In this document: piece after piece, positions 3,497-61,219 of the stretch
Layout of the letters: each line of letters starts with the position of its first letter
How positions within the stretch are numbered: position 1 is the first letter of the stretch
From: Chryseosolibacter histidinae
GTDB lineage: Bacteria > Bacteroidota > Bacteroidia > Cytophagales > Cyclobacteriaceae
Assembly: GCF_018598225.1 (NCBI RefSeq)
Contig: NZ_JAHESF010000010.1
Coordinates: forward strand, 124,001 to 188,000
Reading direction: 5' to 3'
DNA length: 64,000 nucleotides
The notes under the pieces: generated by a model
What the model was told of the DNA's origin: nothing
Seen by the model: the letters and a program-made list of their open reading frames with translations, nothing else
Databases searched by the model: none
Position numbers and translations under genes: made by a program

Positions 3497-3563
3497 GGTA
3501 CGAGATACGAAGTACGATCACCCGATCTGCATTCATCGTACCTCGTATTTCGTACCTCGTACC
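3497..3563. repeat. Inverted heptamer-array pair, GTACGA type
   Basis: Left array of GGTACGA-like heptamers (3497-3518) and right array of its complement (3535-3563). The arms pair over 22 bp with two mismatches around a 16-nt loop. The site lies between two divergent genes (Hsp70 and oxidoreductase), so it is not simply a terminator. Confidence 0.85.
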
Positions 3564-3572
3564 TCCCGTAAA

Positions 3573-3594
3573 TCGTGGTCTGTGGACTTTACGG
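3573..3594. repeat. Short heptamer array, GTGGAC type
   Basis: CGTGGTC followed by TGTGGAC, the same word family as the arrays at 24.27, 34.3, 57.3 and 60.35 kb. It sits just before the candidate promoter of the oxidoreductase gene. Confidence 0.6.
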
Positions 3595-3625
3595 TTGCCA
3601 ATCCTGTTTATTCCTCCTATTTTAG
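3595..3625 (+). promoter_or_regulatory. Candidate promoter of the Gfo/Idh/MocA gene
   Basis: TTG at 3595-3597 and TATTTTAG at 3618-3625 with 20 nt between them, close to the Bacteroidota TTTG/TAnnTTTG pattern (the last two positions are inverted). The leader to the ATG would be about 25 nt. Confidence 0.4.
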
Positions 3626-3655
3626 GTTCCAACGCAATCAATTTTATTCCAATCG

Positions 3656-5026
3656 ATGAACCACTTCAATATCAACCGCAGACGCTTCCTGCAGGGAGCT
3701 TCGGCATCACTGGCCCTCACTACGCTGGGCGCTTATGGCATGGATATCATCCACCCGCAGCAAACCCGCAAGGTGGCTTTGATCGGCACCGGATGGTATG
3801 GCAAAAGTGATCTGTTCAGGCTGATCCAGGTAGCTCCGGTTGAAGTGGTGGCGCTTTGTGATGTCGATAAAAATCTGCTCAACGCGGCTGGCAACCTTGT
3901 GAAACAGCGCCAGAAGTCCGGCAAGGTTCCCAAGCTTTATGGCGATTACCGGAAAATGCTGGCAGAGAACCAGCTCGATATTGTGCTCATCGGTTCTCCT
4001 GACCACTGGCACGCGCTACAGGCCATCGATGCCGTGAAAGCCGGGGCGCACGTATACGTTCAGAAACCCATCAGCGTGGATGTGATGGAAGGAGAAGCCA
4101 TGGTTGCCGCCGCACGCAAATACAACCGTGTGGTGCAGGTGGGCACGCAACGCAAAAGCACGCCACACCTCATCGATGCCAAGAAGAACATCGTTGATGC
4201 AGGACTGCTGGGCAAAGTGTCGCACGTTGAAATGTGCTGCTACTATCACATGCGCGCCAATGGCAATCCGGCGGTAGAACCTGTGCCCGATTTCTTCGAT
4301 TATGAAATGTGGACCGGTCCTGCGCCGCTGCGTCCTTATGATGGGCTTCCCCACATCCGGTGGTGGCGCACCTTTATGGAGTATGGCAACGGCATCATGG
4401 GCGATATGTGTGTCCACATGCTCGACTCCGTTCGTTGGATGCTCAACCTCGGGTGGCCTAAGCGCATCAGCTCCACGGGAGGCATCTACGTTCAGAAAGA
4501 AGGCAAGTCAAATATCGCCGATACACAGACGGCGATCTTCGAATACGACGGACTCAACTGCGTGTGGCAGCACCGTTCGTGGGGCACACCTGCCGATCCC
4601 GAGTATCCTTGGGCCTTCAAGATCTATGGCGACAAAGGAACGCTGGCGGCCAGCACCATGCAATATGACTTTATCCCGGAAGGGAAAGGAGTAGAAAAGA
4701 TCCATAAAGATGTTGTCTACGAAAAAGAAAAATATCCGGAAGACCTGACGGAAGAGCGCATCGAGCTGAATGCCGCCCCCGCCACGAGGCTGCACATGCT
4801 CGACTTCCTGAAAGCCATCGACGAAAAAAGTAAACCTGTCGCCGATATCGAGCAGGGACATATCTCCACAGCAAGTTGCATCCTGGCCAACCTCTCCATG
4901 AAAACGGGACGGCCCCTGGTTTACGATCCCAAAAAACGCGAAGTGACCGGCGACCCCGAAGCCACCAAACTGTTGCAGCGCGCCTATCGGGGACCGTGGG
5001 TGCACCCGAATCCGGAGAAGGTGTAG
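3656..5026 (+). CDS. Tat-exported Gfo/Idh/MocA family oxidoreductase
   Basis: A 456-residue NAD(P)-dependent oxidoreductase. The N-terminus carries a twin-arginine signal (RRRFLQGAS, residues 8-16), so it is predicted to fold with its cofactor and be exported. The Rossmann motif is [11 protein letters not shown] (40-50). [11 protein letters not shown] is a variant of the family EKP motif with Gln in place of Glu. [15 protein letters not shown] carries the His used in catalysis. Members act on sugars, inositols or similar polyols; Tat-exported ones are common in Bacteroidota and Planctomycetes, often in polysaccharide degradation. No polysaccharide locus is next to it here, so the substrate cannot be guessed. 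The gene stands alone, convergent with the molybdopterin oxidoreductase and separated from it by a heptamer hairpin. Confidence 0.88.
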
Positions 5027-5030
5027 AATT

Positions 5031-5110
5031 AGGTACGAGGTACGAAGGACGAGGTACGATGCCTTCTTCGATCCGGGCGCCACGTACTTCGTACCTCGTA
5101 TCTCGTACCT
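5031..5110. repeat. Inverted heptamer-array pair, GTACG type, between convergent genes
   Basis: Four heptamers of AGGTACG type (5031-5058) face a complementary set (5083-5110). Arms match at 24 of 28 positions around a 24-nt loop. The right arm ends directly at the stop codon of the minus-strand gene, and the left begins 4 nt after the stop of the plus-strand gene. It may end transcription in both directions. Confidence 0.88.
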
Positions 5111-7270
5111 TTACTCACGCTCCTTTTCAAGATTCACAGGAAGTCTCCTCACCCTCTTCCCCGTTGCAGCAAACAGCGCGTTGGCCAATGCAGGCGCTAT
5201 AGGCGGAACACCGGGCTCGCCTGCACCACCCATGGGCCCCTCAGACGGCACAATATGCACTTCAACCTGGGGCATCTCATTGATGCGCAGCATGCGGTAG
5301 TTATGGAAATTGCTTTGCGTGACCTTTCCCTGCTCCAGCGTGATCTCCCCGTACAAGGCTGCCGTAAGTCCATAAACGATGCCTCCTTCCATCTGCGCGC
5401 GAACGCCATCCGGGTTCACGGCCAGTCCACAATCAATGGCGCACACCACGCGGTGTAGGCGGATCTTCTTATTAACCACCGATAATTCAACGATCTGTGC
5501 AACGTAGCTGTTCATGGCCTCGTGCACAGCCACGCCCCTGAACCGGCCTGCAGCCATGGGGTTGCTCCATCCTGCCTTTTCCGCGGCGAGGTTGAGGGCG
5601 GCCAGGTGGCGGGGGTGATCTTTGAGCAGCGTACGCCGGTAGTCCACGGGGTCTTTCCGCGCAAGCGTTGCCAGCTCATCGATCAGCGACTCCATCACGA
5701 AGCAGGTATGAGTATGCCCCACCGATCGCCATGCCGACACCGGCACATTGATCTTTGTAGTGTGCAGTTCCACCGAATGATCGGGAATAGTTGTAAGGTA
5801 GGGTGAGCCATGCACACCACCAACCGAGCTGTAGTCGATGCCATTGGGGGCGATGTCGTTTTCAAGGATCGTGCCACCGAAGAGGGATTGTCCCACCACG
5901 TGGTGCCGCCACGACTGCGGATATCCATCACTGCCGATGCCAATGATCGCTCTATGAACATAAAAAGGACGATAATATCCGCCTCTGATATCGTCTTCCC
6001 GCGACCACACCAACTTCACCGCCCTTCCGCTTGCCTTGGCGATGTGCACCGCGTCCATCATCCAGTCGTCCTTGAAGGTGCCACGTCTTCCAAAGCTTCC
6101 GCCGATCGCGGGTGTATTGAACTCAACCTGCTCGGGCTTCAGGCCCAGGAACACCGCCACTTCGGCCTGGTGGATCAAAGGCGATTGTGTGCCTGCCCAT
6201 ACTTCACATTTGTCTTGCGTGATCCTTACCGTACAATTCAAGGGTTCCATCGGTGAATGGGCCAGGAAAGGAAACGTGAACTCAGCTTCAACAACCTCCA
6301 CGGCCTGGCTGAGCGCACGTTCCACATTACCCCTATGTTGTGTGATTCGCCCCGCGGTACGGGACAACCTTTTATATTCTCCTTCCAGTGCAGTAGTGGT
6401 AACGGTTTCAACAGCGCCATGGTCCCACTCGATCTGAAGTGCGTCGCGTCCGAGCTTCGCCGCCCAATAGTGATCAGCCAGCACAGCAACGCCTGCCGGG
6501 ATCTCTAGTACATCGTGCACACCCTGCACAACTTTTGCACGCGCGGCATCGAGCGTCTTCACCTTGCCTCCAAAAACAGGCGGATAGGCCACCACTGCCG
6601 TGAGTAAGCCTGGGAACTGGATGTCGATGCCGTACTTCGTTTTGCCACTGGTCTTGTCTGGCGTATCGAGTCGTTTCTGAGGTTTGCCGATGTATTTCCA
6701 CTGCGCAGGTTCACGCAGCTTTACCGATGGCACGGGCAGCTTCGATGCGTCGGACGCTATTGCACCGTAGCTGAGCTTCCGGTCTCCGCTGATGACGTAA
6801 CCGTTCTCCGTTCGACACGCTTCCGGCGCAACATTCCATCGGTTTGCAGCAGCGCTTACTAACATGGTACGGGCCGTTGCTCCTGCCAGGCGATACCGGT
6901 CAAATTCTGAACGGGTTGAGTCCGAGCCACCGGTGGACAACGCATAGACCGATTCCGCAAAATCGGTTCCTTTACCACCCGGCCTATGCGCTACTTTTAT
7001 CTTGCTCCAGTCAAAATCAAGCTCTTCAGCGATCAGCATGGGTAACGTGGTCCAGACCCCCTGCCCTATTTCCACCTTGGAAATGATGATGTGAATACTA
7101 TTGTCTTCGCTTATATGCAGGAAAGCATTGAGCGCCACTTTCGCCAAAGGTGTGTCCGATAAGGAGCGCAGGCCTCGAGCCGGCACACTAAAAGAGATCA
7201 GCAGCCCACCCGCGGCGAGCGCACCTGTTCTGATAAAATCCCTGCGGTTGATGTTAGCTGATTTCCTCAT
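5111..7270 (-). CDS. Tat-exported molybdopterin-binding oxidoreductase, IorB/xanthine dehydrogenase type
   Basis: A 719-residue protein of the isoquinoline 1-oxidoreductase beta-subunit type in the xanthine dehydrogenase superfamily. I chose the ATG at 7270 because it places a Tat signal ([15 protein letters not shown]) at residues 8-22; the 45 in-frame residues before it look random. [34 protein letters not shown] and [18 protein letters not shown] are molybdopterin-contact motifs, and the Glu in GAGEPG corresponds to the catalytic base. Such proteins oxidise N-heterocycles or aldehydes and need a small [2Fe-2S] alpha subunit. No such gene is next to it, so the partner must be elsewhere. Periplasmic by inference. 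Single-gene unit. Confidence 0.88.
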
Positions 7271-8000: not shown

Positions 8001-8067
8001 ATCCTTCCGTCATTCTATTCCTTCCGCAGGATCTTTGCCGCTGCATCAGTTGTTGTCCTGACAGGAC

Positions 8068-13514: not shown

Positions 13515-13691
13515 AATAGTAGGCAGTAGGCAAAATCAGATAGCTTTCAGCTATCTGGCAGTAGGCAATAGTGGCGTGAAAATATCACTACCGTTTTCCC
13601 ATTCAATTAGAAAAACGTCAGTGAAGGTTTACTCACATTGCCTACTGATTATTGCCTACTGCCTACTGATTGATTACGGCTTTGCCTACTG
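13515..13691. repeat. Inverted heptamer-array pair, GTAGGCA type
   Basis: Left array (13515-13569) of GTAGGCA heptamers encloses an extra perfect 8-bp hairpin at 13537-13557. The right array (13637-13691) carries the complement (TGCCTAC, TGATTAT). The centre is about 67 nt. It sits in the long leader or promoter region of the GH10-like gene. Confidence 0.85.
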
Positions 13692-14943: not shown

Positions 14944-15118
14944 AGTTGACAGTTGACAAAAAGCAATTGACAATAGCCAGAGACCGTATTGCGATCCGCC
15001 TGCCGATTCAAAGAAGCCGGTGGCGCGTGACAGTTCTGGCACTAAGAGCCTTCCCTACCGGAGCCTGATCACATTGGCTCAAACGCTTTGTCAACTGTTC
15101 GGTTGTCAACTGTCAACT
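14944..15118. repeat. Inverted heptamer-array pair, AGTTGAC type
   Basis: Left array AGTTGAC, AGTTGAC and degenerate units (14944-14978); right array GTCAACT units (15076-15118). The centre is about 97 nt. It fills the whole space between the aldo/keto reductase stop and the PhnD-like gene start on the same strand. Confidence 0.85.
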
Positions 15119-24272: not shown

Positions 24273-24307
24273 AGTCCACGGTCGACGGTCCACAGACCAC
24301 GGCCGTA
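24273..24307. repeat. Single heptamer array, GTCCACG type, in a 5' leader
   Basis: Five units in strict 7-nt steps: AGTCCAC, GGTCGAC, then three more of the same pattern. It lies between the predicted transcription start and the ATG of the AraC gene, so it should be in the mRNA leader. Confidence 0.85.
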
Positions 24308-24382: not shown

Positions 24383-24407
24383 CGGCGGAAAACGGCGCGG
24401 ACTTTAA

Positions 24408-24431
24408 ACCTTAAACTTTAAACTTTTAACT
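24408..24431. repeat. Single heptamer array, TTTAAAC type
   Basis: Repeats of ACTTTAA and CTTAAAC type before the FtsX permease gene, same word family as at 39.1, 52.2 and 59.9 kb. Confidence 0.6.
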
Positions 24432-27125: not shown

Positions 27126-27151
27126 ATAGTCTACGAACCAGACCAGGGGCT

Positions 27152-27190
27152 ACCAATCACCAATTACCGATCACCAATCACCGATCATCT
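27152..27190. repeat. Single heptamer array, ACCAATC type
   Basis: Five perfect 7-nt steps, ACCAATC, ACCAATT and variants with ACCGATC, ending 8 nt before the stop codon of the outer membrane efflux gene. Confidence 0.85.
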
Positions 27191-27194
27191 GACT

Positions 27195-28619
27195 CTACTT
27201 CCACCCTCCCCCCAAGCTCGCATACAACTCCACACGCGCACTCAATTGCTGTCGTGTAATGGCGCTCTTTTCGAGCGATGCCTGCAGCGCGCGGCTTTGT
27301 GCGGTGATCACTTCGAGGTAATTGGCCATGCCACTTCTGAACAGAAGCTGCGCGTTGGTCACAGCCTGGTCGAGTGTCTGCGCGCGGGCCGTGGCCACCT
27401 GTTGCTGTGTGGCAAGCTTGTCAATTTTTATCAGCGCATTGGTGACTTCATGTACGGCGGTGGTCACGGACTGCCTGAAGGCAATCACCTGCTCTTCACG
27501 GTGTATTTTAGCCACCTCGAATTGCGTTCTCAGGGCACGGCGCTGAAAGATGGGTTGCACCAGGTTTCCTGCAGCGGTACCAAACAACGATGCGGGTACT
27601 GTAAACCAGCTTGACGACTTGTAGGCGTTCAGTCCGCCGGATGCGGTGAGGCTCAGCGCCGGGTACATGTTGCCCTGCGCTACTCCCACACGGGCGTTGG
27701 CAGCGATGAGCGCCTGCTCGCTGGCCCGCACATCTGGGCGGAACCGCAGCAGATCGGCAGGAACGCCGGTAGCCAGGTTTTCTCCGATGACGATGTCACT
27801 CAGCGCAAGCTGTCGCGCTACTTCACCGGGAAGCTCTCCTGCCAGCAGGTGAATGGCATTTTCCTGTAAGGTGATGGCTTGCTCGAGCTGAGGTACAAGC
27901 AACGCCGCAGTCTGTTGCTGCGCCTGCGCCTGCTGAACGGCGAGCTCCGTTACCTCGCCCGCATCTTTCTGAAGCCTGATGATGTTGAGCAGGCTGTCGC
28001 TCAAGGATACGTTGCGCCGCGCAATGGCGAGCTGCTCGTCCATCATCAACAGGTTGTAATAGCTATCGGCCACCTGCGCCACCAGGCTGGTCTGCACGGC
28101 ACGTCCTGCTTCATAGGTTTGCAGGTAGTCGGCCAGCGCGGCCTGCTTCTGCCGGCGGATCTTGCCCCACACATCGAGCTCCCACGAAATACCGGTGCTC
28201 AGCGTATAATCTTCAATGTGCTTTACATGGAGAAAATTGCTGAGACTAATGCCGTTGAGGCTGTTCTCCGATGGGTTCACCGTAGACGCTGCCACCTGGG
28301 CATTCCAGGCGGGAAGCCACGCCGCGCGTGCCTGCCGCGAGTAAGACCTCGAGACCTCGATACGTTTGATGGCCAGCTGCAGGTTGAAGTTGTGCGCGAT
28401 CGATCGCTCGATCAGTGCCGCGAGCGTTGTATCCTGGAAGAATACCTTCCACGAGCGTGTAGCCAGGCTGCTGTCAGCGGAGACCGCCGCGTTATACTTT
28501 TCGGGGAGCGCCAGTGAGGGCTGCTTGTAATTACGGCCCACCGAACATCCCAGCAGTACGGCAGCCATTAAAAAGACCGTTATATAAGGTATTGTATGAT
28601 ATGTCTTATGCTTTTGCAT
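27195..28619 (-). CDS. RND efflux outer membrane lipoprotein (NodT/OprM family)
   Basis: A 474-residue TolC-like channel protein and last gene of a three-gene efflux operon. Signal with lipobox VLLGC (Cys about 25). The tandem OEP domains are visible: YNAAVSADSSLATRSWKVFF, then ELDVWGKIRRQKQAALADYLQTYEAGRAVQTSLVAQVADSYYNLL, and GVPADLLRFRPDVRASEQALIAANARVGVAQGNMYP, the hallmark of the NodT family. It forms a trimeric outer membrane duct linked by the adaptor to the inner membrane pump. It begins 20 nt after the pump gene stop, so it is translated from the same mRNA. Confident family assignment; drug range unknown. Confidence 0.93.
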   Translation of the reverse strand: MQKHKTYHTIPYITVFLMAAVLLGCSVGRNYKQPSLALPEKYNAAVSADSSLATRSWKVFFQDTTLAALIERSIAHNFNLQLAIKRIEVSRSYSRQARAAWLPAWNAQVAASTVNPSENSLNGISLSNFLHVKHIEDYTLSTGISWELDVWGKIRRQKQAALADYLQTYEAGRAVQTSLVAQVADSYYNLLMMDEQLAIARRNVSLSDSLLNIIRLQKDAGEVTELAVQQAQAQQQTAALLVPQLEQAITLQENAIHLLAGELPGEVARQLALSDIVIGENLATGVPADLLRFRPDVRASEQALIAANARVGVAQGNMYPALSLTASGGLNAYKSSSWFTVPASLFGTAAGNLVQPIFQRRALRTQFEVAKIHREEQVIAFRQSVTTAVHEVTNALIKIDKLATQQQVATARAQTLDQAVTNAQLLFRSGMANYLEVITAQSRALQASLEKSAITRQQLSARVELYASLGGGWK

Positions 28620-34331: not shown

Positions 34332-34488
34332 AGTCCACGGTCCACGGTCGACAGTCCACGGCCGCGGGTGTGAAGTCACTCGAGCGGTGCTTCGCTCTTG
34401 ATGGCAGTAGCAGACTCGTACCTCGTAAATCGCACCTCGTACCTTCCTGACACACCTGCTGTGGACTGTGGACCATCGACGGTGGACC
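34332..34488. repeat. Inverted heptamer-array pair, GTCCACG type, with nested GTACCTC array
   Basis: Left array AGTCCAC, GGTCCAC and two more (34332-34362) and right array of the complement (34458-34488) match at 25 of 31 positions. Inside the 95-nt centre lies a third array of a different word, CGTACCT-type, in four 7-nt steps (34417-34444). It lies between divergent AraC and LytS genes. Confidence 0.88.
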
Positions 34489-36339: not shown

Positions 36340-36519
36340 AGAAGTCAGGAGTCAGAAGCCAGGAGTCAGAAGGAGCAAGTAGTAAGTAGTAAGGAGGGGT
36401 ACTTCCAGGAAAAGAGATTCAGAGTCCTGCGGCTTAAATCCTTGCGTTACCTGTGTTGGCCGGACTCCTTACTCCTTACCTCTGGCTCCTTACTACTTAC
36501 TTCTGGCTCCTTACTACTT
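36340..36519. repeat. Inverted heptamer-array pair, GGAGTCA/AAGTAGT type
   Basis: Left array (36340-36397) starts as GAAGTCA, GGAGTCA units and changes to AAGTAGT units, all in 7-nt steps. Right array (36463-36519) is the complement type (TACTACT, GGCTCCT). The centre is about 65 nt. The right array lies inside the 3' end of the minus-strand gene at 36447-36797. Confidence 0.87.
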
Positions 36520-37855: not shown

Positions 37856-37901
37856 TAGAAGTCAGAAGTCAGGAGGAGCAAGTAGTAAGGAGTAAGGAGG
37901 A
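37856..37901. repeat. Single heptamer array, AGAAGTC/AAGGAGT type
   Basis: AGAAGTC, AGAAGTC then AAGTAGT and AAGGAGT steps, the same two words in the same order as the left arm at 36.34 kb. It sits upstream of the DUF1080 gene; no inverted partner found. Confidence 0.78.
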
Positions 37902-39068: not shown

Positions 39069-39172
39069 AAAAGTTTAAGTTTAAAGTTTGAAGTTTAAAG
39101 TTTGAAGTTGGAGGTTTTGAAGTTGGAGGTGCGGCTTCGTGATCGGGCACAACTTTAAACCTTAAACTTGTA
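39069..39172. repeat. Inverted heptamer-array pair, AAGTTTA type
   Basis: Left array AAGTTTA, AAGTTTG units (39069-39111) and right array of TTTAAAC units (39149-39172). About 19 of 21 positions pair across the nearest arms. The centre ends are GTGC and GCAC, extending the stem. It fills the gap between the convergent DUF2541-like and cheB genes. Confidence 0.87.
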
Positions 39173-46223: not shown

Positions 46224-46273
46224 AGATTAAAGACATTTAGATATGAGACATGAGATATGAGATATGAGACTAG
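46224..46273. repeat. Single heptamer array, GAGATAT type
   Basis: Seven units (one of 8 nt) including GAGACAT, GAGATAT. It lies between the receptor gene start and the porin stop on the same strand, hence in the leader of the chemotaxis operon or the tail of the porin mRNA. Confidence 0.85.
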
Positions 46274-47811: not shown

Positions 47812-47835
47812 AGACAAATCATTATTCGTACTTAA

Positions 47836-50478
47836 TTATTCGTACTTAAGTGTTTCTACGGGGTTGATCCGGCCGACCTTCACCGTCTGCGAGCCGATGA
47901 TGGCGATCACCAGCACAAACAACAGCACAATGCTGATGGCGATCTCTGCGAAGCCGATGTTGGCGCGGTAATAGAATATGCTGAGAAAGACCTTGTCAAA
48001 AAGAAACCAGGTGAGCGGCGTGGCGATGGCTACGGCCAGGGCAATGAGCTTCAGGAACCCGCTGGAGAGCGCAAACGCAAGGTTGGAAGCCGTAGCCCCA
48101 AATACTTTCCTGATGCCCATCTCACGGGTACGGCTTTCGGCAGCAGAGATCACTACCGCCAGCAAGCCCAGGCACGAAATGGTGATGGCCAGCGCACCCA
48201 GAAAACCGAAGATCTTGATCATGGACCGGAAAGAGACCAGCGCGGCTTCAAGCTCATCGTCGAGGAAACGCGCTTCGAACTTCTGGTCCGACAGTTTGTT
48301 CCAGACACTTTCAACCCGCGCCAGCGACTGCTGTATATCGTCTGACGTTAACGATACGTTGGCGAACGCGAACTGCGCGGGATCACATCGGAAGAAGAAA
48401 CTCCCGATCGCCTCTTGCAAAGGCATGAAATTGAAGTCTTTCACCACGCCGATCACCTGCAGCGTTTTTTCATCGTCCACAATAAAGGTCCGGCCAAGCG
48501 CATCGTACGGAGTGCTGATATCGAATTTTTTCAAAAACGTTTCATTCACTATCACGTACGCTTCTCTTGCTGACGCGTCTGGTGGAAACCCCTCGCCCGC
48601 CAGCATTTTGATCTGAAGGTTATCGATGTAATGCTGGTCTACGAACATTTGGAACACCTGCATCGAATCCGTTTCGGCAGACGACCTCACCCATGCCGCC
48701 GAGCCTTCCCAGTTGCCGGGCACAGAAGACGACAGTGATACGGTGCCGACCTCGGGAAGCTTTGACAATTCCGTTTGTAAGATCTTTTGATCGACACCTT
48801 TCAAGGGGATGTCGAGTATGTTCTCTTTTTTGAAGCCAACGTCATAATGGAGCGCATAGCTGTACTGTTTCAGAATGATGGCCACACCCAGGATAAAGAC
48901 CAGCGACAAGGCGAACTGCGTTACGATCAATCCCTTGCGGATGGAGATCTTCGAGAGCTTGCCGCTCTGCGATGAATTGCGAAGGGTCTGGATAGGATTG
49001 AGCCTCGCAAAGTAAGACGCCGGCAACACACCCGCTACAAAACCTGTGATGATGCCGAAGACCAGGAAGGCACAGAATGTAAGCGGCGTAACCTCGAGGC
49101 TGAACACTCTCTCCTGGTTAACCACCATGCCGATGAATTGTGAACGGATGGCGTGAAAGAGCAGCATGGCGCCAGCGAGGGAGATCACGGACAATATGAT
49201 CGTCTCCATCACCATCTGGAAGAAGATGTGCCTCGATTGCCCTCCTGAAACTTTCCGCAGCCCGATCTCCTTGGCACGTTTCAGCGCGCGGGCAATGGCG
49301 ATGTTAGCATAATTGAAACACGCCGGCAGCAGCACCAGCAATGCAAGGCTGAAGAAGATCACCAGCGGCACATAACCCCATGACAATCCAACTTCCCGGT
49401 AAAGGTCAGACATGGGAATATCGGCCAGAGGCTGCAACTCAAAATTTACTTTCTGCTTCGCATCCTTATCATAAGCGGTTGTTTTTATTTTTTCAAGCGT
49501 TGGCATAAGCTGCTCCGACGATGTGCCGGGGCTGAACAGTGCATAGGTATAATGGGGCGATACGGGCTCCCAATCCTCGAGCGAAGGTTCGATCCTCCGC
49601 TGATGTTCCAACACGGCGAGGGTACTGTACGATGCCAGCGCCTCGAAGTAAAAATGTGAACGGGGATAATCCGCCACCACACCAGTGATCTCGAACACAC
49701 CCAGGCCTTTCACTTCCAGCGTCTTGCCCACCACCTGGTTATAACGGAACAGCTTGCGGGCAGCCGATTGTGTGATCACGATGCTGAAAGGTTTATCCAG
49801 CGCGTGTTCTGCATTACCTTCCGCCAATGGAAATGAAAATACGCTGAAGAAGTTCTCGCTCACGTAGTAACCTTGCAGGGGCAACGATGTGTTGGCCGAC
49901 TGAACGATCTCAGGATTGAAATCTCTGTTCACTTCGGCAACAGCCTCGATGCCTGCCACGTCGCTCCTCAGTTTTTCGGCGAGGGGCGCCGGTGATGTAG
50001 CATAGGTTCTGATGTTGCTGCCATCGTCTACGGTAGACGTGACGCGGTAGATCCTGTCTGCGTTCACCTGGAATTTGTCAACTTCCATTACATCGACAAA
50101 AGCTGCTAACGCGAGCAGTCCCACCGACATGCCCACAGAAAGGCAGATGATGTTGATGATCGAAAAGGTCTTTTGTTTGGCCAGGCTGCGAAAGGCGATC
50201 TTCGCATAACTTTTGTACATGGCCACGGAGTGATAGGTGTCGGAGCCATATTTGTCTTTGTAAAAACGTTTGCGTTTTCTCACAGCGTAAGAGAAGATGA
50301 GCGAGAGCGCCTGGAGCCAGTAGGCAAAACGTGCTTTGAAACGTCCCTTTGTTTTTACATTCTGATAAAAGAGCTCGTCCATGTCGCCGGTGAGGTCTTC
50401 GGCGATCTCCGGCCCGCAATACCATTCAAAAAAATGCTTCGGCCATGCCGGTGGGGTTGTCTTCTGCTGTTGGCTCAT
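47836..50478 (-). CDS. FtsX-type ABC permease with permease-prefix domain
   Basis: 880 residues. The N-terminal about 90 residues (PPAWPKHFFEWYCGPEIAEDLTGDMDELFYQNVKTKGRFKARFAYW) form the cytoplasmic permease-prefix domain found when a PadR gene precedes. The MacB-type body follows: first helix FSIINIICLSVGMSVGLLALAAFVDVM, periplasmic domain, FtsX core with LKRAKEIGLRKVSGGQSRHIFF, second periplasmic domain, and last core with SRTREMGIRKVFGATASNL. The start overlaps the PadR stop by 4 nt. No ATPase gene adjacent. Probably a stress- or antimicrobial-responsive exporter controlled by the PadR protein (known pairing in Bacteroidota; role inferred). Confidence 0.92.
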   Translation of the reverse strand: MSQQQKTTPPAWPKHFFEWYCGPEIAEDLTGDMDELFYQNVKTKGRFKARFAYWLQALSLIFSYAVRKRKRFYKDKYGSDTYHSVAMYKSYAKIAFRSLAKQKTFSIINIICLSVGMSVGLLALAAFVDVMEVDKFQVNADRIYRVTSTVDDGSNIRTYATSPAPLAEKLRSDVAGIEAVAEVNRDFNPEIVQSANTSLPLQGYYVSENFFSVFSFPLAEGNAEHALDKPFSIVITQSAARKLFRYNQVVGKTLEVKGLGVFEITGVVADYPRSHFYFEALASYSTLAVLEHQRRIEPSLEDWEPVSPHYTYALFSPGTSSEQLMPTLEKIKTTAYDKDAKQKVNFELQPLADIPMSDLYREVGLSWGYVPLVIFFSLALLVLLPACFNYANIAIARALKRAKEIGLRKVSGGQSRHIFFQMVMETIILSVISLAGAMLLFHAIRSQFIGMVVNQERVFSLEVTPLTFCAFLVFGIITGFVAGVLPASYFARLNPIQTLRNSSQSGKLSKISIRKGLIVTQFALSLVFILGVAIILKQYSYALHYDVGFKKENILDIPLKGVDQKILQTELSKLPEVGTVSLSSSVPGNWEGSAAWVRSSAETDSMQVFQMFVDQHYIDNLQIKMLAGEGFPPDASAREAYVIVNETFLKKFDISTPYDALGRTFIVDDEKTLQVIGVVKDFNFMPLQEAIGSFFFRCDPAQFAFANVSLTSDDIQQSLARVESVWNKLSDQKFEARFLDDELEAALVSFRSMIKIFGFLGALAITISCLGLLAVVISAAESRTREMGIRKVFGATASNLAFALSSGFLKLIALAVAIATPLTWFLFDKVFLSIFYYRANIGFAEIAISIVLLFVLVIAIIGSQTVKVGRINPVETLKYE

Positions 50479-50804: not shown

Positions 50805-51000
50805 GTTAAGGTGTTGATACGCAAAGGAAGTACATTTGTTTCTACTTTTCATAACAAATAGGAGATTTTTGTATGCCGTGGTGCGGGACAGTGCGTTACG
50901 TGCCAAAAAAAGCATCACCAGATAAAATTACCTCTCAATCCTAACATGATTCTCGAAAGCCCAATCGCGCAGGTAAAAAACCCCTGCGAACGAAGCCCTC

Positions 51001-51033
51001 CTGACTCCTGGCTCCTTACTCCTGGCTTCTTTT
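51001..51033. repeat. Single heptamer array, GGCTCCT type
   Basis: GACTCCT, GGCTCCT, TACTCCT-like steps before the NdpA-like gene. A separate small hairpin (CGCAGG and CCTGCG) lies at 50968-50988. Confidence 0.75.
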
Positions 51034-52151: not shown

Positions 52152-52291
52152 AGTTTCAAGTTTCAAGTTTGAAGTTTCAAGTTTGAAGTTTCAAGTTAGT
52201 GCGGTATTGGGTCAACGTAACCGTCTTGCTGATGGAACATTGGAAACGAAGCACAACTTTTAACTTTAAACTTCTAACTTTAAACCTTTAA
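52152..52291. repeat. Inverted heptamer-array pair, AAGTTTC/AACTTTA type
   Basis: Left array AAGTTTC, AAGTTTG alternating (52152-52196), right array AACTTTA, AACTTCT units (52253-52291). The centre begins AGTGCGG and ends GCACAAC, as in the element at 39.1 kb. It lies between convergent genes. Confidence 0.87.
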
Positions 52292-52384
52292 CGGTAACCG
52301 GTAGACGGTAATCCGCAACCTGGTAATGGCTCCTGTTCACTGATTGCCAATTACTGATCGCTGGATTACCGACTACTGATCACC
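52292..52384. repeat. Two further heptamer arrays, GGTAACC and TACTGAT types
   Basis: GGTAACC, GGTAGAC steps (52293-52325) followed by CACTGAT, TGCCAAT, TACTGAT steps (52338-52384). The second array runs across the stop of the minus-strand gene at 52366 and encodes its last few residues. Confidence 0.75.
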
Positions 52385-52695
52385 GCTTTCCGGTTGAGCC
52401 GCAGCATTTGTTGTTTCGGAGAGAAGCCGATAAACCTTACTCTTAAGATACCACGTGCCTGAAGGTCCTGTTTCACCTTGAGCAGATGCCAGACGGCGTT
52501 CTCGTACGGCTCGATGACATGGAACTGTGTCATGCCAGCCATCAGGTCGGTAAACGCGATCTCCGGCGCCGAGTCGAATGCGGAGATGATGAACTCACGC
52601 ATGCGTTCGTAGTATTTTTTCGAAAGCACAGAACCACGCGTTCCGTCGGCATTCAGGGTCACGATGCGCTCCGGAACATTTTTTATCGTCTCCAT
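52366..52695 (-). CDS. Small hypothetical protein, DUF6958-like
   Basis: 109 residues. TLNADGTRGSVLSKKYYERMREFIISAF, then ITFTDLMAG-type helix and ENAVWHLLKVKQDLQARGILRV resemble the small Bacteroidota DUF6958 winged-helix-like proteins as I remember them (helix, SLEKYNLV-like start, then KLDLEARKIIER). I would call this a DNA- or protein-binding fold without known function. Its start overlaps the stop of the jelly-roll gene upstream by 13 nt, so it is the last gene of that operon. The C-terminal VISSR lies in a heptamer array. Confidence 0.6.
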   Translation of the reverse strand: METIKNVPERIVTLNADGTRGSVLSKKYYERMREFIISAFDSAPEIAFTDLMAGMTQFHVIEPYENAVWHLLKVKQDLQARGILRVRFIGFSPKQQMLRLNRKAVISSR

Positions 52696-54852: not shown

Positions 54853-54965
54853 ACCCCAACCCCTCCCGGCCTCCCCTACTTCGTATGGGAGAAGTCGATC
54901 GATCGAACCCCTCCTGGCCTCCCCTGTATCACAGGGGAGGTGTCGAGCGAAGCGATGACGGTGGG
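54853..54965. repeat. Composite CCCCTCC repeat with internal hairpin
   Basis: Two partial direct copies of an ACCCCTCC(C/T)GGCCTCCCCT unit (54858-54877 and 54907-54926). The second copy forms a 9-10 bp hairpin CTCCCCTGT with ACAGGGGAG (54919-54939). Outer ends CACCCC and GGTGGGG can pair, closing the whole element. It lies between the regulator stop and the jelly-roll gene on the same strand. I recall similar sequences as dispersed repeats in Bacteroidota genomes but cannot verify it. Confidence 0.7.
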
Positions 54966-57238: not shown

Positions 57239-57268
57239 GCGGATAAAGCTATCGTTTTTGGACGAAAG

Positions 57269-57421
57269 AGTCCACAGTCGACAGTCCACGGCAATAAGGG
57301 TTACATAGACTTTTTGGCGACTGGCTTTGTCTTTAAACCGTACGAGGGTAATTTCTATGAAGTACGCCCAGATGACTTCGCACACCCGGCTGTGGTCTGT
57401 GGACTGTGGACCGTGGACTGT
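57269..57421. repeat. Inverted heptamer-array pair, GTCCAC type
   Basis: Left array AGTCCAC, AGTCGAC and one more (57269-57292), right array TGTGGAC units (57388-57420). Arms match at 20 of 24 positions; the centre is about 95-100 nt. The right arm abuts the stop of the FtsX permease gene. Confidence 0.87.
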
Positions 57422-59799
57422 TATTCGTCCTTCAACGTATGCACCGGACTCATAAACACGGTCGCCAGTGTCTTATACCCTACTGTGACCAACGCTACCC
57501 CAAACAGGGAGAGGATGGCTGCCGCGAGTGCTGAGAGCTCAATGCGCAGGTAATATTCCCACACGGCATCCATGAGCTTGTCTGTCATGACGTAACCCGC
57601 GGCGCCGCCCAGCAGCGAAGCAACGGAAAGGATGATGATGAACTCCTGGTTGATCACCCTGGCGATATTGGCCGCCGGCGCGCCCAGCACTTTGCGCACG
57701 CCGATCTCTTTCATTTTCTTCAGGATGTTGAGCGACACCAGCGCAAACAATGCCGTAGCCGACATCAACACCGCCATCAGCCCCAGGAAACCGAAGATGC
57801 GCACAGCATTGTTGTTGATCATCTCAGACACCCACATGTTGCCATCGGTATACTTTCCGTTATAGAGGGTGTTCGGCGAGATCTTTTTCCATTCCGCTTT
57901 CATCAGGTCATTGATAGCGGACATCTTTTCAGCCGAGGTGCTCACCACGATCTGGGTATACTGCTCCGGCGCCACATACCGAAGCATCACCGGACCCGCG
58001 GGTTTCCAGAATCCATCGGTCAGGATATCGTTCACCACCCCTATCACATAAAGTTGAATGGAGTCTTTCCACAGCAGCCGTTTCCCTAACGCACTCCCTG
58101 TCCACCCGTACTGTTTTACGAAGGTCTCCGAGACGAGCACCGATTCCCTGATGTCGGTCTCGGAATCCTGCCGGAAGCCCCGGCCTTCAAGCAGGTTTAT
58201 GTTCATGGCTTCCAGGTAGCCGTCGCCGATGTCTACCACTTCCACCTGGTGCTCCGCTCCTTCAAACTTCACAGGTCCTTTGTAATACCGGTCCGAAACA
58301 TGGTCTTTGGATCCGCCGATGGCGATGACATCTTTGTTTGCCATCAACACATTGCGGAACGCCCTGAACTCCTGCGCGCCTGCAACATTCGCTACGATCA
58401 CTCCCTGCTTGGCATAACCCAGGCTATAGTCGCGCTGGTACGCCGCATTCCTGATGAAGCCGATGCCCAGCACGATGCACACCAGTGCAATACTGAACTG
58501 AAACGTGAGCAGGGTGCGGGTAAACCAGTTGGTGCCGCCGAACCTCAGCTTTCCTTTCAGAATGGCGATAGGTTTGAATGAGGTGATATAGAACGCGGGA
58601 TAGGTGCCGGCGACCAGTGCGGTGAACAACAGCATGACGACCAGGAAAAAGAAGAACGAAAGATTTTCCGTGTAGCGGATGGTGAGCTTGAGGTTAGGCC
58701 AGAGACTCGAGTAGGCCGGCGCCAGCACTTCGGCCAGCAGCAGCCCCGTGATCAACGCAAAAAAACACAACACCATACTCTCGCCCAAAAACTGAAAGAC
58801 TAGCTGTCTTCTTGCGCCGCCCATGGTCTTGCGAACACCGATCTCCTTCAGCCTTCGTCCCGACAGGGCTACCGTGGTGTTGGTAAAATTGAAACAGGCA
58901 AGCAGCAGCAGGAAGACTGCCATCAGGCCCGGGCCGGCGATCACCGATGGAGGGAATCCCCAACGGAGCTGCTCGCCGTTCAGCCAGGTTTCGCCATAAA
59001 AGCTGGCCGCGAGTGTGCTGAAGTTCTGGAGATAGTACGCGCTGAGCTTCAGGTCTGCACGGGCCAGGTTCTGCGGTGCAATGTAAGTCTGTAGCTGTCG
59101 TGTTACGGCATCTGTGCGCGAGGGATCGTTGATCCGGATAAACACGGTGCTCATACCTTTCCAGTCCGTGTCGGGCGAACCGGTTTCATCAAAGAAATTA
59201 TCCCACAGGGTGACGGCCTCGCAGGCGAAGCTGGAATTGAGCGGCTGCTGCTTAAAAACGCCACCGACCACAAACTCTTTGAGGACGCCCTTATCGATGC
59301 GGGTGAGCTGGCGGCCCACCACATCTTCGGTTTTAAAATATTTGCGGGCAAGCTCGTCGCTGATGAAGATGTGGCTTTTATCGCGGAACGAAGTGAATGC
59401 GCCCGCCTTCAGCTCGAAAGTAAAGAAGTCAAAGAAGGCGGGATCGGCGTAAGCCACCGCGGTGCTGAATACCTCGTCGCCAATCCTGACGTTGGTGCCG
59501 GCCATGGTATACCGCACCACTTCATCCACATCATTAATGTTCTGCTTCACCATCCCGCCAAGCGCGTGAGGTACCACGGCATAACGGCTGTGCTGATCCT
59601 GGTAGTGATGCCACGCCTGAATGCGGTAGATGTTTCCGGTGTTCACATGGTTGTGGTCAAAGCGCCGGTTGAAATCCAGGTTGAGGTAGGCAACGATGCA
59701 GCACGCAATGGCGATGCCTAACCCAAGCACGTTGATGAAAACGGGGACCTTGTTCTTCATGAGGTTACGGAAGGTGATCAGCAGGTAGTTTGTAATCAT
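57421..59799 (-). CDS. MacB/FtsX-type ABC transporter permease
   Basis: 792 residues. First helix VPVFINVLGLGIAIACCIVAYLNLDF, MacB_PCD-like periplasmic domain to about 270, FtsX core with SGRRLKEIGVRKTMGGARRQLVFQFLGES, second periplasmic domain about 440-650, final core with ILKKMKEIGVRKVLGAPAANIARV and four-helix arrangement. Same general plan as the permeases at 24.5 and 47.8 kb, with coupling motifs KEIGVRK(T/V)(M/L)G. No ATPase nearby. Upstream of and on the same strand as the OmpR-type kinase/regulator pair, which hints at a sensor-transporter link of the Bce type, but they are separated by a heptamer hairpin. Confidence 0.92.
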   Translation of the reverse strand: MITNYLLITFRNLMKNKVPVFINVLGLGIAIACCIVAYLNLDFNRRFDHNHVNTGNIYRIQAWHHYQDQHSRYAVVPHALGGMVKQNINDVDEVVRYTMAGTNVRIGDEVFSTAVAYADPAFFDFFTFELKAGAFTSFRDKSHIFISDELARKYFKTEDVVGRQLTRIDKGVLKEFVVGGVFKQQPLNSSFACEAVTLWDNFFDETGSPDTDWKGMSTVFIRINDPSRTDAVTRQLQTYIAPQNLARADLKLSAYYLQNFSTLAASFYGETWLNGEQLRWGFPPSVIAGPGLMAVFLLLLACFNFTNTTVALSGRRLKEIGVRKTMGGARRQLVFQFLGESMVLCFFALITGLLLAEVLAPAYSSLWPNLKLTIRYTENLSFFFFLVVMLLFTALVAGTYPAFYITSFKPIAILKGKLRFGGTNWFTRTLLTFQFSIALVCIVLGIGFIRNAAYQRDYSLGYAKQGVIVANVAGAQEFRAFRNVLMANKDVIAIGGSKDHVSDRYYKGPVKFEGAEHQVEVVDIGDGYLEAMNINLLEGRGFRQDSETDIRESVLVSETFVKQYGWTGSALGKRLLWKDSIQLYVIGVVNDILTDGFWKPAGPVMLRYVAPEQYTQIVVSTSAEKMSAINDLMKAEWKKISPNTLYNGKYTDGNMWVSEMINNNAVRIFGFLGLMAVLMSATALFALVSLNILKKMKEIGVRKVLGAPAANIARVINQEFIIILSVASLLGGAAGYVMTDKLMDAVWEYYLRIELSALAAAILSLFGVALVTVGYKTLATVFMSPVHTLKDE

Positions 59800-59837
59800 G
59801 GTGATGGTGGGTTTTGCGGATTGGACGCGGGAGGTGA

Positions 59838-59930
59838 GTTGCCGGTTACCGGTTGCCAGTTGCCGGTTTTGGGCGGTGAGAAAGTTGGAAGAGGGCGGTT
59901 AAAGTTTAAAGTTTGAAGTTTAAAGTTGGG
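59838..59930. repeat. Two heptamer arrays, TTGCCGG and AAGTTTA types
   Basis: TTGCCGG, TTACCGG, TTGCCAG steps at 59839-59868 and AAGTTTA, AAGTTTG steps at 59901-59927, upstream of the permease gene. No inverted partners found. Confidence 0.8.
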
Positions 59931-60348
59931 AGTTCAGGTTGCCAGGTTGAGATTGACTTAGGATACGGCTGCTTCGGATTTACTTATTGGTTGAGTTTAA
60001 CAATGGCGATAAATTTTGCTGAGGATTAAGCACTTATAAATGCAAACAGAAGATTCTTTGGTGAGAATTTGAGAGGATGGTAGCGAGATGAGCCGGAGGA
60101 CTGAAAAAACTGCTTTTAGACATGTAAAAAGGGCGAAAATGAAGCAGAAAATGGTTTTTTTATGCTTTGTCACGAAGTGCTGAAAACTTACATCGTTTAC
60201 AGTCCTGGCCTGAATAAACATGCATAAAAAATTACGGATCAGATAGTTATAAGGTGATAGTTAGAGTTGTAAAAGGCAGTCTTTGGTGAAGCATTCTGTG
60301 TTCGTAACCAGGTGTCTTCAAGGCGACGGTGGAGGTTTAAGAGGTGAC
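59931..60348. other. Intergenic region, AT-rich
   Basis: About 400 nt without a convincing gene. One minus-strand frame (59997-60221, 74 codons) has no recognisable features. Likely holds regulatory sequence for the small membrane protein gene. Confidence 0.4.
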
Positions 60349-60376
60349 AGTCCATGGTCTACAGACCACAGCAGTC
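60349..60376. repeat. Single heptamer array, GTCCATG type
   Basis: AGTCCAT, GGTCTAC, then AGACCAC in 7-nt steps. It is partly self-complementary (GGTCT with AGACC). A related array at 61187-61219 lies on the other side of the small-protein/Rrf2 gene pair. Confidence 0.7.
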
Positions 60377-60483
60377 CCTCCCAGGAAACCGGAATCCTGT
60401 GCGGTGATGTGGGCGGGCAATGCGCGAGCGAAGGATCCCGTAGCTGGCATCACTTTTTCCCTGATGCTGGCAAACTTCAAAAC

Positions 60484-60870
60484 ATGAACAATTTTTTTAG
60501 AGCTCTGATCGCCGGGTATGGCGCGAAGAAGTTGGGCGGTGGCTGCCTGGGTACGGTGCTTGTCTTTATTATTATCTGGGTGGCGCTGGGACAATGCAGC
60601 TGCAGCGAAAAGATGGAGCGGGAAGTAAGTCGTCAGACCACGTCGCAGGTGTGGAGTCCTGCTGATGATCTGACGACTGAAGGGGGTTATACTTTTTCTT
60701 CGGCCAGCGGATTTACCGGTTGTGGAGTAACCGGCGGTAACAATGACAAATGCTGGAGGTCTGACAGCGAGCTGCCCGACAGGATCTTCAGGGTCTCATC
60801 ACGCACGGCGCTGAACAGCCGATTGATGCTGCAGGTGGCCTCGTTTTCGCAACGGCCACATGACTGGTAG
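60484..60870 (+). CDS. Small single-span membrane protein, C-terminus overlapping the Rrf2 gene
   Basis: The first about 40 residues (MNNFFRALIAGYGAKKLGGG then CLGTVLVFIIIWVALGQC) look like a tiny Gly-rich, one-helix protein that I have seen repeatedly as 40-55 residue hypotheticals in Bacteroidota. Here the frame does not stop after QCSC but runs on to 129 codons, the last 62 being antisense to the 3' end of the Rrf2 gene. Either the original stop was lost or the tail is a real extension. The frame also extends upstream to 60283, but the ATG at 60484 is the family-like start. Function unknown; inner membrane. Confidence 0.55.
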   Translation: MNNFFRALIAGYGAKKLGGGCLGTVLVFIIIWVALGQCSCSEKMEREVSRQTTSQVWSPADDLTTEGGYTFSSASGFTGCGVTGGNNDKCWRSDSELPDRIFRVSSRTALNSRLMLQVASFSQRPHDW

Positions 60871-61157
60871 AAGTTAAGCGACACGCAGGGAAGCATAGCC
60901 ACGGCCCCATCGATGAGGCGAATGACTTCAAGCACACTTACTTCGGCTGGCTTACGTTTCAGGTAATACCCTCCGAACTTTCCTTTCTTGCTGCCAAGAA
61001 TGCCGGCGTTCTTCAGGTTGATCAGGATATTCTCCAGGAACTTCTTGGGAATATTCTTGCGCTCCGCAATCTCATGAATCGTGAGGCGGTCGGATTCCTC
61101 ATGCTCCACCATGTAAAGCAGGGCATGAAGTGCGTACTGGCATTTTTTTGATAACAT
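60687..61157 (-). CDS. Rrf2-family transcriptional regulator
   Basis: 156 residues. Winged helix MLSKKCQYALHALLYMVEHE to TIHEIAERKNIPKKFLENILINLKNAGILGSKKGKFGGYYL. Three cysteines in the positions used by IscR/NsrR-type proteins for an iron-sulfur cluster: Cys in LPCVSLNFY, SCGRC and ATCSINRLF. It probably senses iron-sulfur status or NO (known family behaviour). The C-terminus is a Pro-rich tail. A full TAnnTTTG promoter lies 210 nt upstream, giving a long leader with a heptamer array. Confidence 0.9.
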   Translation of the reverse strand: MLSKKCQYALHALLYMVEHEESDRLTIHEIAERKNIPKKFLENILINLKNAGILGSKKGKFGGYYLKRKPAEVSVLEVIRLIDGAVAMLPCVSLNFYQSCGRCENEATCSINRLFSAVRDETLKILSGSSLSDLQHLSLLPPVTPQPVNPLAEEKV

Positions 61158-61186
61158 ATTGGGTTTGGGTAATGAGTTTTCAAATC

Positions 61187-61219
61187 AACTCTCCATGGGT
61201 CCATGGTGGATGGGCCATA
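61187..61219. repeat. Single heptamer array, GTCCATG type, in Rrf2 leader
   Basis: CTCCATG, GGTCCAT, then GGTGGAT in 7-nt steps, 30 nt upstream of the Rrf2 start codon and so within the predicted mRNA leader. Confidence 0.65.

What the first reader, a model, noticed from the sequence alone, without database searches (positions are those of the whole stretch)
3497..61219. Dispersed arrays of degenerate heptamers: period 7 conserved, unit sequence not
At more than twenty intergenic sites I see short arrays of three to nine imperfect tandem units. The unit differs by site (AGGTACG, AGTCCAC, AAGTTTA, GTAGGCA, AGTTGAC, GGCTCCT, ACCAATC, GAGATAT, TTGCCGG, TACTGAT), but the step is 7 nt almost everywhere, with rare 8-nt slips. 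Ordinary repeat families conserve sequence; here only the period and form are shared. Heptanucleotide short tandem repeats (STRR) are known from heterocystous cyanobacteria, but those keep a fixed sequence. The pattern suggests an active process that builds or copies 7-nt units, and it recurs about every 2-3 kb. I know of no named system that does this.
Basis: seen in the sequence. Interest (0 to 1): 0.85.

Follow-up and report, generated by a model that had tools for sequence, protein, structure and literature searches.

The report
Mobile-like elements with heptamer ends
The scattered seven-letter repeats are real: many are the paired, inward-pointing ends of hundreds of small elements that look mobile and sit right behind genes' stop signals, but direct proof that they move, and any enzyme that moves them, are still missing.

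Summary
Confirmed. The 7-nt period is far beyond chance, but the arrays are neither independent nor arbitrary. They come largely as convergent inverted pairs, some 870 per 8 Mb genome by extrapolation, in at least eight word families; most share an RGT head plus four family-specific bases. In the commonest family, F1, each end has a 4-nt cap and usually four units.

F1 elements have two different ends, found in both orientations, and all eight units change together at position 7 between two subfamilies. Arm-to-arm pairing is weaker than for swapped partners in four of six groups, which argues against hairpins and terminators. Elements abut stop codons and fill convergent gaps to a median of 6 nt.

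Best reading: non-autonomous mobile elements whose ends are tandem 7-bp protein sites. Direct evidence of copying is thin: after masking, 9 of 782 same-family spacer pairs match, 6 of them through repeats also found elsewhere. Enzyme, binding protein and activity are inferred; no candidate was found.

Precedent: Xanthomonas GGGAATC repeats share four units, convergent pairs and stop proximity, but were explained by G-quadruplexes, which cannot fit most words here. New: many words in one genome, defined ends, evidence against hairpins.

The parts
3497..3563 (.). F3 element: left arm RGTACGA x3, 18-nt spacer, right arm x4
   Evidence: word scan
5032..5109 (.). F3 element filling the gap between two convergent stop codons (5026 and 5111)
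   Evidence: stops
13518..13667 (.). F7 element (AGTAGGC x2 each side; left arm interrupted by a small hairpin, then a further unit)
14944..15118 (.). F1b element (AGTTGAC x2, short insert, further unit; inverted partner)
24274..24300 (+). unpaired F1-type left arm
24401..24431 (-). unpaired F2-type right arm
27151..27187 (-). F5-like right-type array next to a stop codon at 27195
   Evidence: stop
34332..34488 (.). F1 element, 4+4 units, with F3-type right-arm units inside its spacer
36340..36519 (.). F4 arrays (AGTCAGG/AGTAAGG), inverted, long arms
   Evidence: word scan gives 36374-36515
37857..37899 (+). unpaired F4-type left arm
39078..39168 (.). F2 element (AGTTTAA/AGTTTGA)
46239..46269 (+). 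solo array AGATATG/AGACATG directly beside a stop codon at 46270
   Evidence: stop
50998..51031 (-). unpaired F4-type right arm between divergent genes; no array at the matching place in G001 and G002
52152..52286 (.). F2 element beginning 4 nt after a stop codon; no array after the same gene in G001 and G002
52290..52385 (.). adjoining F5-type arrays (GGTAACC... and ...GATTACCGACTACTGATCACC)
   Evidence: read from the sequence
57269..57419 (.). F1 element, 3+4 units in the scan; right end abuts the stop at 57421
59838..59868 (+). F6-type left arm (RGTTGCC/RGTTACC)
59899..59934 (+). F2-type left arm (AGTTTAA/AGTTTGA)

Best explanation
Many of the arrays are the two ends of small (about 60-260 bp) non-autonomous mobile elements in at least eight word families. 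The best-resolved family, F1, reads RAAK cap, four tandem 7-bp units, weak G-rich inner box, spacer, then the same in reverse complement. F1 elements have two distinguishable ends, alpha and beta. I infer that each 7-bp unit is a site for one subunit or dimer of a protein that assembles cooperatively over about four units per end and lets an unidentified recombinase or transposase, acting in trans, copy and insert the element. Families differ in their four variable bases because they answer to different binding specificities. Copies persist mainly where they harm least, immediately behind stop codons. Shown: inverted architecture, fixed orientation, unit number, F1 end polarity and coherent subfamilies, residence at stops, absence at two compared orthologous sites. 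Weakly shown: whole-element copying (few homologous spacers). Inferred: protein binding, the enzyme, any current activity.
For: Same-family neighbours within 250 nt: LR 108, RL 0, LL 10, RR 6. Four units in 33 of 40 left and 34 of 40 right F1 arms. F1 position 7 is coherent over all eight units in 31 of 31 elements (21 all or nearly all C, 10 all or nearly all T). Exactly one unit with G at position 5 in 51 of 62 F1 arms, null 28.2; two or more in 1, null 11.9; alpha and beta opposite in 13 of 14 scorable elements, Fisher p 0.003, 5 in one orientation and 8 in the other. Spacers of the same family match more than controls: 22 comparisons (20 distinct pairs) against 0 of 938 shuffled and 3 of 2,622 cross-family, flanks unrelated (median 11, random 11); with arrays masked and inner boxes trimmed, 9 of 782 against 0 of 2,346 shuffled and 1 of 1,910 cross-family. 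Orthologous sites in G001 and G002 lack arrays at the two places compared. The window gene at 3656-5026 aligns to G001 up to its stop, so the element there did not truncate it.
Against: Of the 9 masked spacer pairs, 6 involve spacer sequences that also match places outside same-family elements, and only 3 are confined to elements. The matches of four such spacers, those inside own-family elements included, lie near an array more often than random positions (11 of 17, 9 of 13, 5 of 9 and 4 of 5 against 495 of 4,000 random positions), but some lie far from any array, so they may be separate repeats that share the niche. Most spacers in a family are not detectably alike. No target-site duplication. 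No autonomous copy: among same-family LR pairs only two are 250-6000 nt apart, one enclosing a T9SS-sorted protein gene, not a transposase. No close strain was available for a base-exact empty site. DDE_Tnp_1 0 in G000 and G002. The RGT head fails in G002, where the backwards pattern scores higher (420 against 265). [quoted passage not shown]
Confidence: 0.5

Rival explanations
1. Architectural or regulatory sites kept by selection at gene ends: tandem 7-bp operators bound by a nucleoid or segregation protein, like BIMEs or like the pSM19035 parS heptads, whatever their origin.
For: Arms are conserved while most spacers are not; spacer length is family-specific; strong 3'-end placement. The omega/ParB protein of pSM19035 binds one dimer per 7-bp non-palindromic repeat and needs at least four contiguous repeats for full ParA activation (PMC9499535, passages).
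Against: Alpha/beta polarity in both orientations and coherent subfamilies look like dispersed copies. Density differs strongly within one genus: 1 lag-7 segment in 54 kb and 0 in 60 kb of G001, 7 in 63 kb and 40 in 340 kb of G002. RHH_1 gave no hit in G000, though that short model is insensitive.
Confidence: 0.28
2. Replication slippage: heptanucleotide repeats grow and shrink in place because 7 nt suits DNA polymerase (the idea of Mrazek 2007, as told in PMC4679880).
For: [quoted passage not shown] A minority of arms are longer (up to 11 units), and G056 holds long pure AGTGATT arrays.
Against: Does not predict inverted pairs, four units, coded non-identical units or caps; in F1 adjacent identical units are rarer than expected (0.070 against 0.168).
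Confidence: 0.08
3. Bidirectional transcription terminators or mRNA-stabilising hairpins formed by the two arms.
For: Position behind stop codons, A-rich cap on the left and T-rich on the right, inverted arms. In F3 with 48-nt arms own pairs are somewhat stronger than swapped ones (-49.4 against -46.8, p 0.06).
Against: With 28-nt arms own pairs are weaker than swapped partners in F1C (-39.1 against -42.6 kcal/mol), F1T, F6 and F2 (p(lower) 0.999, 0.997, 0.996, 0.975); F3 and F5 neutral. No same-element gain in F1 pairing when G-U is allowed (0.862 against 0.859, p 0.40). Arrays also occur between divergent genes (13 of the 97 arrays placed in gaps).
Confidence: 0.07
4. G-quadruplex elements, as proposed for the Xanthomonas and Nostoc heptamers.
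For: Same four-unit preference, convergent pairs and stop-codon proximity in PMC4692102.
Against: Most words here lack the G-tracts that a quadruplex needs (AGTTTAA, AGTCCAC, AGTACGA), yet show the same four-unit preference.
Confidence: 0.02

Closest known systems
GGGAATC / GGGGA(C/T)T heptamer repeats of Xanthomonas and Nostoc (PMC4692102; abstract, passages and sections 11, 14, 15, 16 seen)
   Same: [quoted passage not shown] its authors found no function.
   Different: One G-rich word per genome, read as G-quadruplexes; only a few pairs in Nostoc; no element ends, polarity, families or mobility in the parts I saw. Here at least eight words coexist and most are not G-rich.
TAACTGA direct repeats of Beggiatoaceae, cyanobacteria and five Bacteroidetes (PMC4679880; abstract, passages, sections 3 and 12 seen)
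   Same: Intergenic heptamer direct repeats, patchy distribution; read on the other strand the unit fits AGT-N4 (AGTTATC).
   Different: One word, mostly just upstream of start codons, one inverted repeat among 170 sets.
Cyanobacterial short tandemly repeated repetitive sequences (recalled; PMC4692102 mentions three heptanucleotides in Calothrix)
   Same: Several heptamer words in one genome.
   Different: No paired, polar elements recalled; not examined here.
REPIN / BIME elements and RAYT transposases (PMC3116915 and PMC2817692: search listing and start of abstract only; the rest recalled)
   Same: Short inverted pair with a spacer, hundreds per genome, at gene ends.
   Different: REPs are single palindromes; here each end is a tandem heptamer array. 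The one strong RAYT gene of G000 has no heptamer array within 1.5 kb.
pSM19035 parS heptads bound by omega/ParB, a ribbon-helix-helix protein (PMC9499535, passages)
   Same: Contiguous 7-bp non-palindromic units, one dimer per unit, four units needed for full activity.
   Different: Consensus WATCACW, plasmid centromere; no RHH_1 hit in this genome.

Membership tests
Xanthomonas-type heptamer repeats (PMC4692102) | 7-nt units, four preferred, convergent pairs, close to stop codons | tested here: met
Xanthomonas-type heptamer repeats (PMC4692102) | G-tracts able to form quadruplexes | tested here: not met
   words
TAACTGA repeats (PMC4679880) | placed just upstream of start codons | tested here: not met
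   51 of 119 array-to-stop distances within 20 nt against 11 of 75 to starts
TAACTGA repeats (PMC4679880) | the word TAACTGA itself | not tested
   not searched for in G000; the families listed here have other words
MITE | short element with terminal inverted repeats | tested here: met
MITE | dispersed homologous copies with unrelated flanks | tested here: inconclusive
   9 of 782 masked same-family spacer pairs, 3 of them confined to elements
MITE | target-site duplication | tested here: not met
MITE | autonomous partner with the same ends | tested here: inconclusive
   none seen in about 11% of the genome
REPIN / RAYT | ends are palindromic REPs | tested here: not met
   ends are tandem heptamers
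REPIN / RAYT | RAYT gene flanked by the repeats | tested here: not met
   none within 1.5 kb of the strong RAYT gene of G000; over the 20 stretches, 9 have some array within 1.5 kb. Action in trans is not excluded.
Simple sequence repeat made by slippage | near-identical neighbouring units, variable number | tested here: not met
   F1; unit number
Intrinsic terminator hairpin | arms selected to pair | tested here: not met
   F1, F6, F2; F3 and F5 neutral
omega/ParB parS | contiguous 7-bp units bound one dimer each | not testable with these tools
   binding cannot be tested; unit count of four is met in 124 of 190 arms
omega/ParB parS | ribbon-helix-helix protein encoded in the genome | tested here: inconclusive
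   PF01402 gave 0 hits in G000 and hits in 2 of 12 genomes; short model

The most novel reading that the evidence does not exclude
A class of mobile elements whose ends are about four cooperative 7-bp sites exists across phyla (Bacteroidota, Xanthomonas, perhaps Beggiatoaceae and cyanobacteria). Each genome runs several parallel families with private words. A period-7 filament-forming DNA-binding protein reads each end, with units 2 and 3 marking which end is which, and insertion is guided to stop codons. The published quadruplex and slippage explanations of bacterial heptamer repeats would then be by-products of this system.
Probability: 0.17. Interest if true: 0.85.

Novelty: new variant of a known kind. 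Interest (0 to 1): 0.6.

Why it matters
The papers I saw leave abundant bacterial heptamer repeats without an accepted explanation (slippage, quadruplexes and translation control were each proposed for one word or in general). A genome in which eight or more words obey the same grammar separates grammar from word. It shows that four units, convergent pairs and stop-codon abutment do not need G-rich sequence. It points to a testable cause, a period-7 DNA-binding protein and perhaps an unknown transposition or recombination enzyme, and offers hundreds of natural substrates in one genome for finding it.

Tried and rejected
RAYT (Y1_Tnp): hits in 47 of 59 genomes. Of the 20 stretches fetched around hits (19 around strong hits, 1 around a weaker one in G000), many show REP-like palindromes beside the gene, judged by eye and not counted. 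9 of the 20 have some lag-7 array within 1.5 kb; the strong RAYT gene of G000 has none, the weaker one has an F3 pair downstream. RAYTs are therefore not supported as the mover, but action in trans is not excluded. XisH: 0 of 59, with the control silent too, so uninformative. DDE_Tnp_1: 0 in G000 and G002, present in 6 of the 12 genomes searched. RHH_1: 0 in G000, 2 of 12 genomes. Rfam: no match in the window at gathering scores; tRNA: none in the window.

A universal RGT head: supported in G000 (1,539 against 236 for the backwards control), G038 (688 against 265), G008, G052 and G053, but not in G002 (265 against 420) and hardly in G055 (608 against 552). One search listed 154 full-length same-family pairs, but its scoring is permissive enough to run through unrelated spacers, so I do not use it. 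One search gave 22 spacer comparisons (20 distinct pairs), some of them through heptamers or inner boxes inside the spacer; masking these left 9 of 782, and 6 of the 9 involve repeats also found elsewhere. Because of these two checks I lowered the mobile reading from 0.6 to 0.5 and raised the architectural rival from 0.2 to 0.28.

Survey for spread: 80 Bacteroidota loci of one gene neighbourhood (1.41 Mb) gave 31 lag-7 segments (lag 8: 13, lag 15: 33) and no inverted pair at the threshold used. 40 stretches of 40 other genomes (600 kb) gave 6 lag-7 segments, little above other lags (0-4 at lags 4-6 and 8-13); the 30 stretches of 9 kb or more were checked for pairs and gave none. Of five more stretches in genomes picked because earlier searches had named them, one (G051) has an inverted pair. 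G002: 15 pairs in 432 kb; G038: 7 in 136 kb, some sharing an arm.

Limits: the second own-genome set (L081-L100, 400 kb) was chosen near AGTCCAC hits, so F1 statistics lean on it (9 of the 31 F1 4+4 elements come from the first set). Gene ends come from a greedy ORF caller; stops are reliable, starts less so. Word lists and family labels are mine. Some of the 106 elements overlap (F2/F6 in L083 and L094), and at least one right arm was mispaired (L092:6637). In one search real pairs were scored on both strands and the shuffled null on one; one search scored both alike.
Full report
What was checked. In the window, lag 7 stands alone: 14 regions at 17 of 21 matches against 0 at lags 4-6 and 8-12. 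In 464 kb of the same genome (window plus L009-L028), 89 lag-7 segments of score 12 or more stand against 0-3 at lags 4-6 and 8-13, 8 at lag 15 and 1 in a Markov control. The genome (G000) has 8.04 Mb in 122 contigs and the window is C11:124001-188000. Its same-genus relative G002 has a contig of 3,021,034 bases, the length of a record titled Fulvivirgaceae bacterium JP3-4, so I infer a member of the Cytophagales, Bacteroidota (lineage).

The arrays are paired. Of 115 arrays, 73 have a reverse-complement partner within 300 nt; controls give 8 (reversed), 8 (direct) and 4 (complement). Scanning 864 kb (the 464 kb above plus 400 kb chosen near AGTCCAC hits) with word lists gives 106 inverted elements, a few overlapping: F1 RGTCCAY/RGTCGAY 40, F2 AGTTTAA-like 18, F6 RGTTGCC 15, F5 GGTAATC-like 10, F3 RGTACGA 8, F1b AGTTGAC 7, F4 AGTCAGG-like 4, F7 AGTAGGC 4. 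In the first 464 kb there are 50, which extrapolates to about 870 per genome; those contigs came from a list of F1 hits, so this may be high. Neighbouring same-family arrays within 250 nt are ordered left-right 108 times, right-left never, LL 10, RR 6 (25 kb more). In most families the left arm reads RGT followed by four family-specific bases, pointing inward.

Anatomy. Units per arm in F1-F6: four in 124 of 190 arms; in F1, 33 of 40 left and 34 of 40 right arms. Outside unit 1 is a 4-nt cap, RAAK in F1 (information beyond it 0.19 bit or less per position); F6 and the pooled F1b/F7/F3 show a similar A-rich cap with another last base, F6 with 0.42 bit still at -5. Inside the last F1 unit is a weak G-rich box (position 2 is G in 62 of 62 arms). 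F7 and F1b arms have two units, an insert (a small hairpin in F7, about 8 nt in F1b) and a further unit. Spacer length is family-specific: F1 mostly 71-208, F3 mostly 10-40, F5 6-66 nt.

F1 has a code. In 31 elements with four units on each side, G2, C4 and A6 are nearly invariant, and positions 1, 3 and 5 vary mainly as A/G, T/A and C/G. Position 7 is the same over all eight units of an element: 21 elements all or nearly all C, 10 all or nearly all T. Exactly one unit per arm carries G at position 5 in 51 of 62 arms (null 28.2); two or more in 1 (null 11.9). That unit is third from outside in one arm and second in the other in 13 of 14 scorable elements (Fisher p 0.003; 4 of 5 in the first-set subset). 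So an F1 element has an alpha end (AGTCCAY GGTCCAY AGTCGAY AGTCCAY) and a beta end (AGTCCAY AGTCGAY GGTCCAY AGTCCAY), seen in both orientations and in both position-7 subfamilies. Adjacent identical units are avoided (0.070 against 0.168). F6 shows a comparable asymmetry by eye, one end often with a GGATGGCC-like fourth unit.

Dispersal, for and against. Comparing spacers only, 22 same-family comparisons (20 distinct pairs) exceed a threshold that 0 of 938 shuffled and 3 of 2,622 cross-family comparisons reach; their flanks are unrelated (median score 11, random 11; 2 of 44 flanks at 30 or more). With arrays inside spacers masked and 20 nt of inner box trimmed, 9 of 782 same-family pairs remain against 0 of 2,346 shuffled and 1 of 1,910 cross-family. 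Six of the nine involve spacer sequences that also match places outside same-family elements; three do not. For four such spacers, 11 of 17, 9 of 13, 5 of 9 and 4 of 5 further matches lie within 200 nt of an array, against 495 of 4,000 random positions. So these inner sequences go with heptamers but are not bound to them. Copying of whole elements is therefore only weakly shown; polarity and coherent subfamilies carry more of the case. There is no target-site duplication. At the two orthologous places that could be compared in same-genus genomes no array is present. G001 had 1 lag-7 segment in 54 kb and 0 in a further 60 kb, while G002 has its own words, with AGTAGGC shared.

Position. Arrays are densest between convergent genes (2.8 per kb), then tandem (1.8), then divergent (1.0). 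In 27 convergent gaps with one element, gap minus element has a median of 6 nt (24 of 27 between -5 and +25), against a median gap of 56 nt in 81 array-free convergent gaps (p 3e-4). In 38 tandem gaps the element starts -7 to +8 nt from the stop in 27, while the distance to the next start is broad. Stops near arms (80) are TAG 31, TAA 25, TGA 24, against TAG 131 of 536 in the sample, partly because a T before unit 1 makes TAG (12 arms at -2). At window 3656-5026 the gene aligns to its G001 relative up to the stop, so the element there did not truncate it.

Not hairpins. RNA duplex energies of own 28-nt arm pairs are weaker than those of swapped partners of the same family in F1C, F1T, F6 and F2 (p(lower) 0.999, 0.997, 0.996, 0.975), and neutral in F3 and F5; with 48 nt F3 leans the other way (p 0.06). 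In F1 and F6 the arms are alike because each carries the same kind of site, not because they must pair. Quadruplexes are excluded for most words because they lack G-tracts.

Mechanism. The features fit ends bound by a protein with a 7-bp repeat, several copies side by side. Such a protein is known: the ribbon-helix-helix ParB (omega) of pSM19035 binds one dimer per 7-bp non-palindromic repeat and needs at least four contiguous repeats to activate ParA fully (PMC9499535, passages). This is an analogy; no RHH_1 hit was found in G000. I propose that such a protein marks both ends and an unidentified enzyme in trans moves the element. DDE_Tnp_1 gave no hit in G000, and the one strong RAYT gene of G000 has no heptamer array within 1.5 kb. 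The rival, that the same binding serves chromosome structure or gene regulation and the sites are not mobile now, is not excluded.

Known and new. PMC4692102 describes GGGAATC repeats in Xanthomonas with the same four-unit preference, convergent pairs and stop proximity, explained by quadruplexes; there 83% keep their gene context between two species, and Nostoc has only a few pairs. PMC4679880 describes TAACTGA repeats and cites the slippage idea. Searches listed no paper on polar elements with heptamer ends; I saw the top rows of each list, and the library holds only open-licence papers. New here are the many words in one genome, the element ends and polarity, the coherent subfamilies and the evidence against pairing. 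The distribution is patchy: no pairs in 80 Bacteroidota loci and none in the 30 stretches of other relatives checked for pairs, but pairs in G002, G038 and G051.

Noticed in passing
L022:16034-17796: F6 arms 1.7 kb apart enclose a 432-aa protein gene with a T9SS sorting domain; the left arm follows a terminator-like T-run and the right arm lies just before the next gene's stop: possible cargo between element ends.
   Followed up: partly
L088:6716-7218: F1 arms 446 nt apart; part of the inside matches spacers of other F1 elements.
   Followed up: partly
L099:18427, L097:2660, L086:19506-19653, L097:10260-10340: A diverged repeat of about 80-150 nt occurs inside several F1 spacers and also at places without heptamer arrays: a separate repeat family or F1 relics.
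   Followed up: partly
L113, L118-L128: RAYT-type Y1 transposase genes of these Bacteroidota often have REP-like palindromes beside them (such as GCCCTGAAAGGGC), judged by eye.
   Followed up: partly
L067:17601-18448: In G002 seven heptamer arrays recur at steps of about 130 nt, a tandem array of a larger unit containing the heptamers.
   Followed up: no
G056:C1:967880-968022 and 1051258-1051386: Long pure AGTGATT arrays (about 20 units), unlike the four-unit arms here; true slippage expansion may occur there.
   Followed up: no
window 54858-54950: 48-nt unit repeated about 1.9 times, unrelated to the heptamers.
   Followed up: no
window 47821-47849: Tandem duplication of a 14-nt unit (ATTATTCGTACTTA) at the end of a gene whose stop is at 47836.
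   Followed up: no
window 34332-34488, L016:8062, L017:13036: F1 spacers that contain F3-type units, suggesting nested or composite elements.
   Followed up: partly
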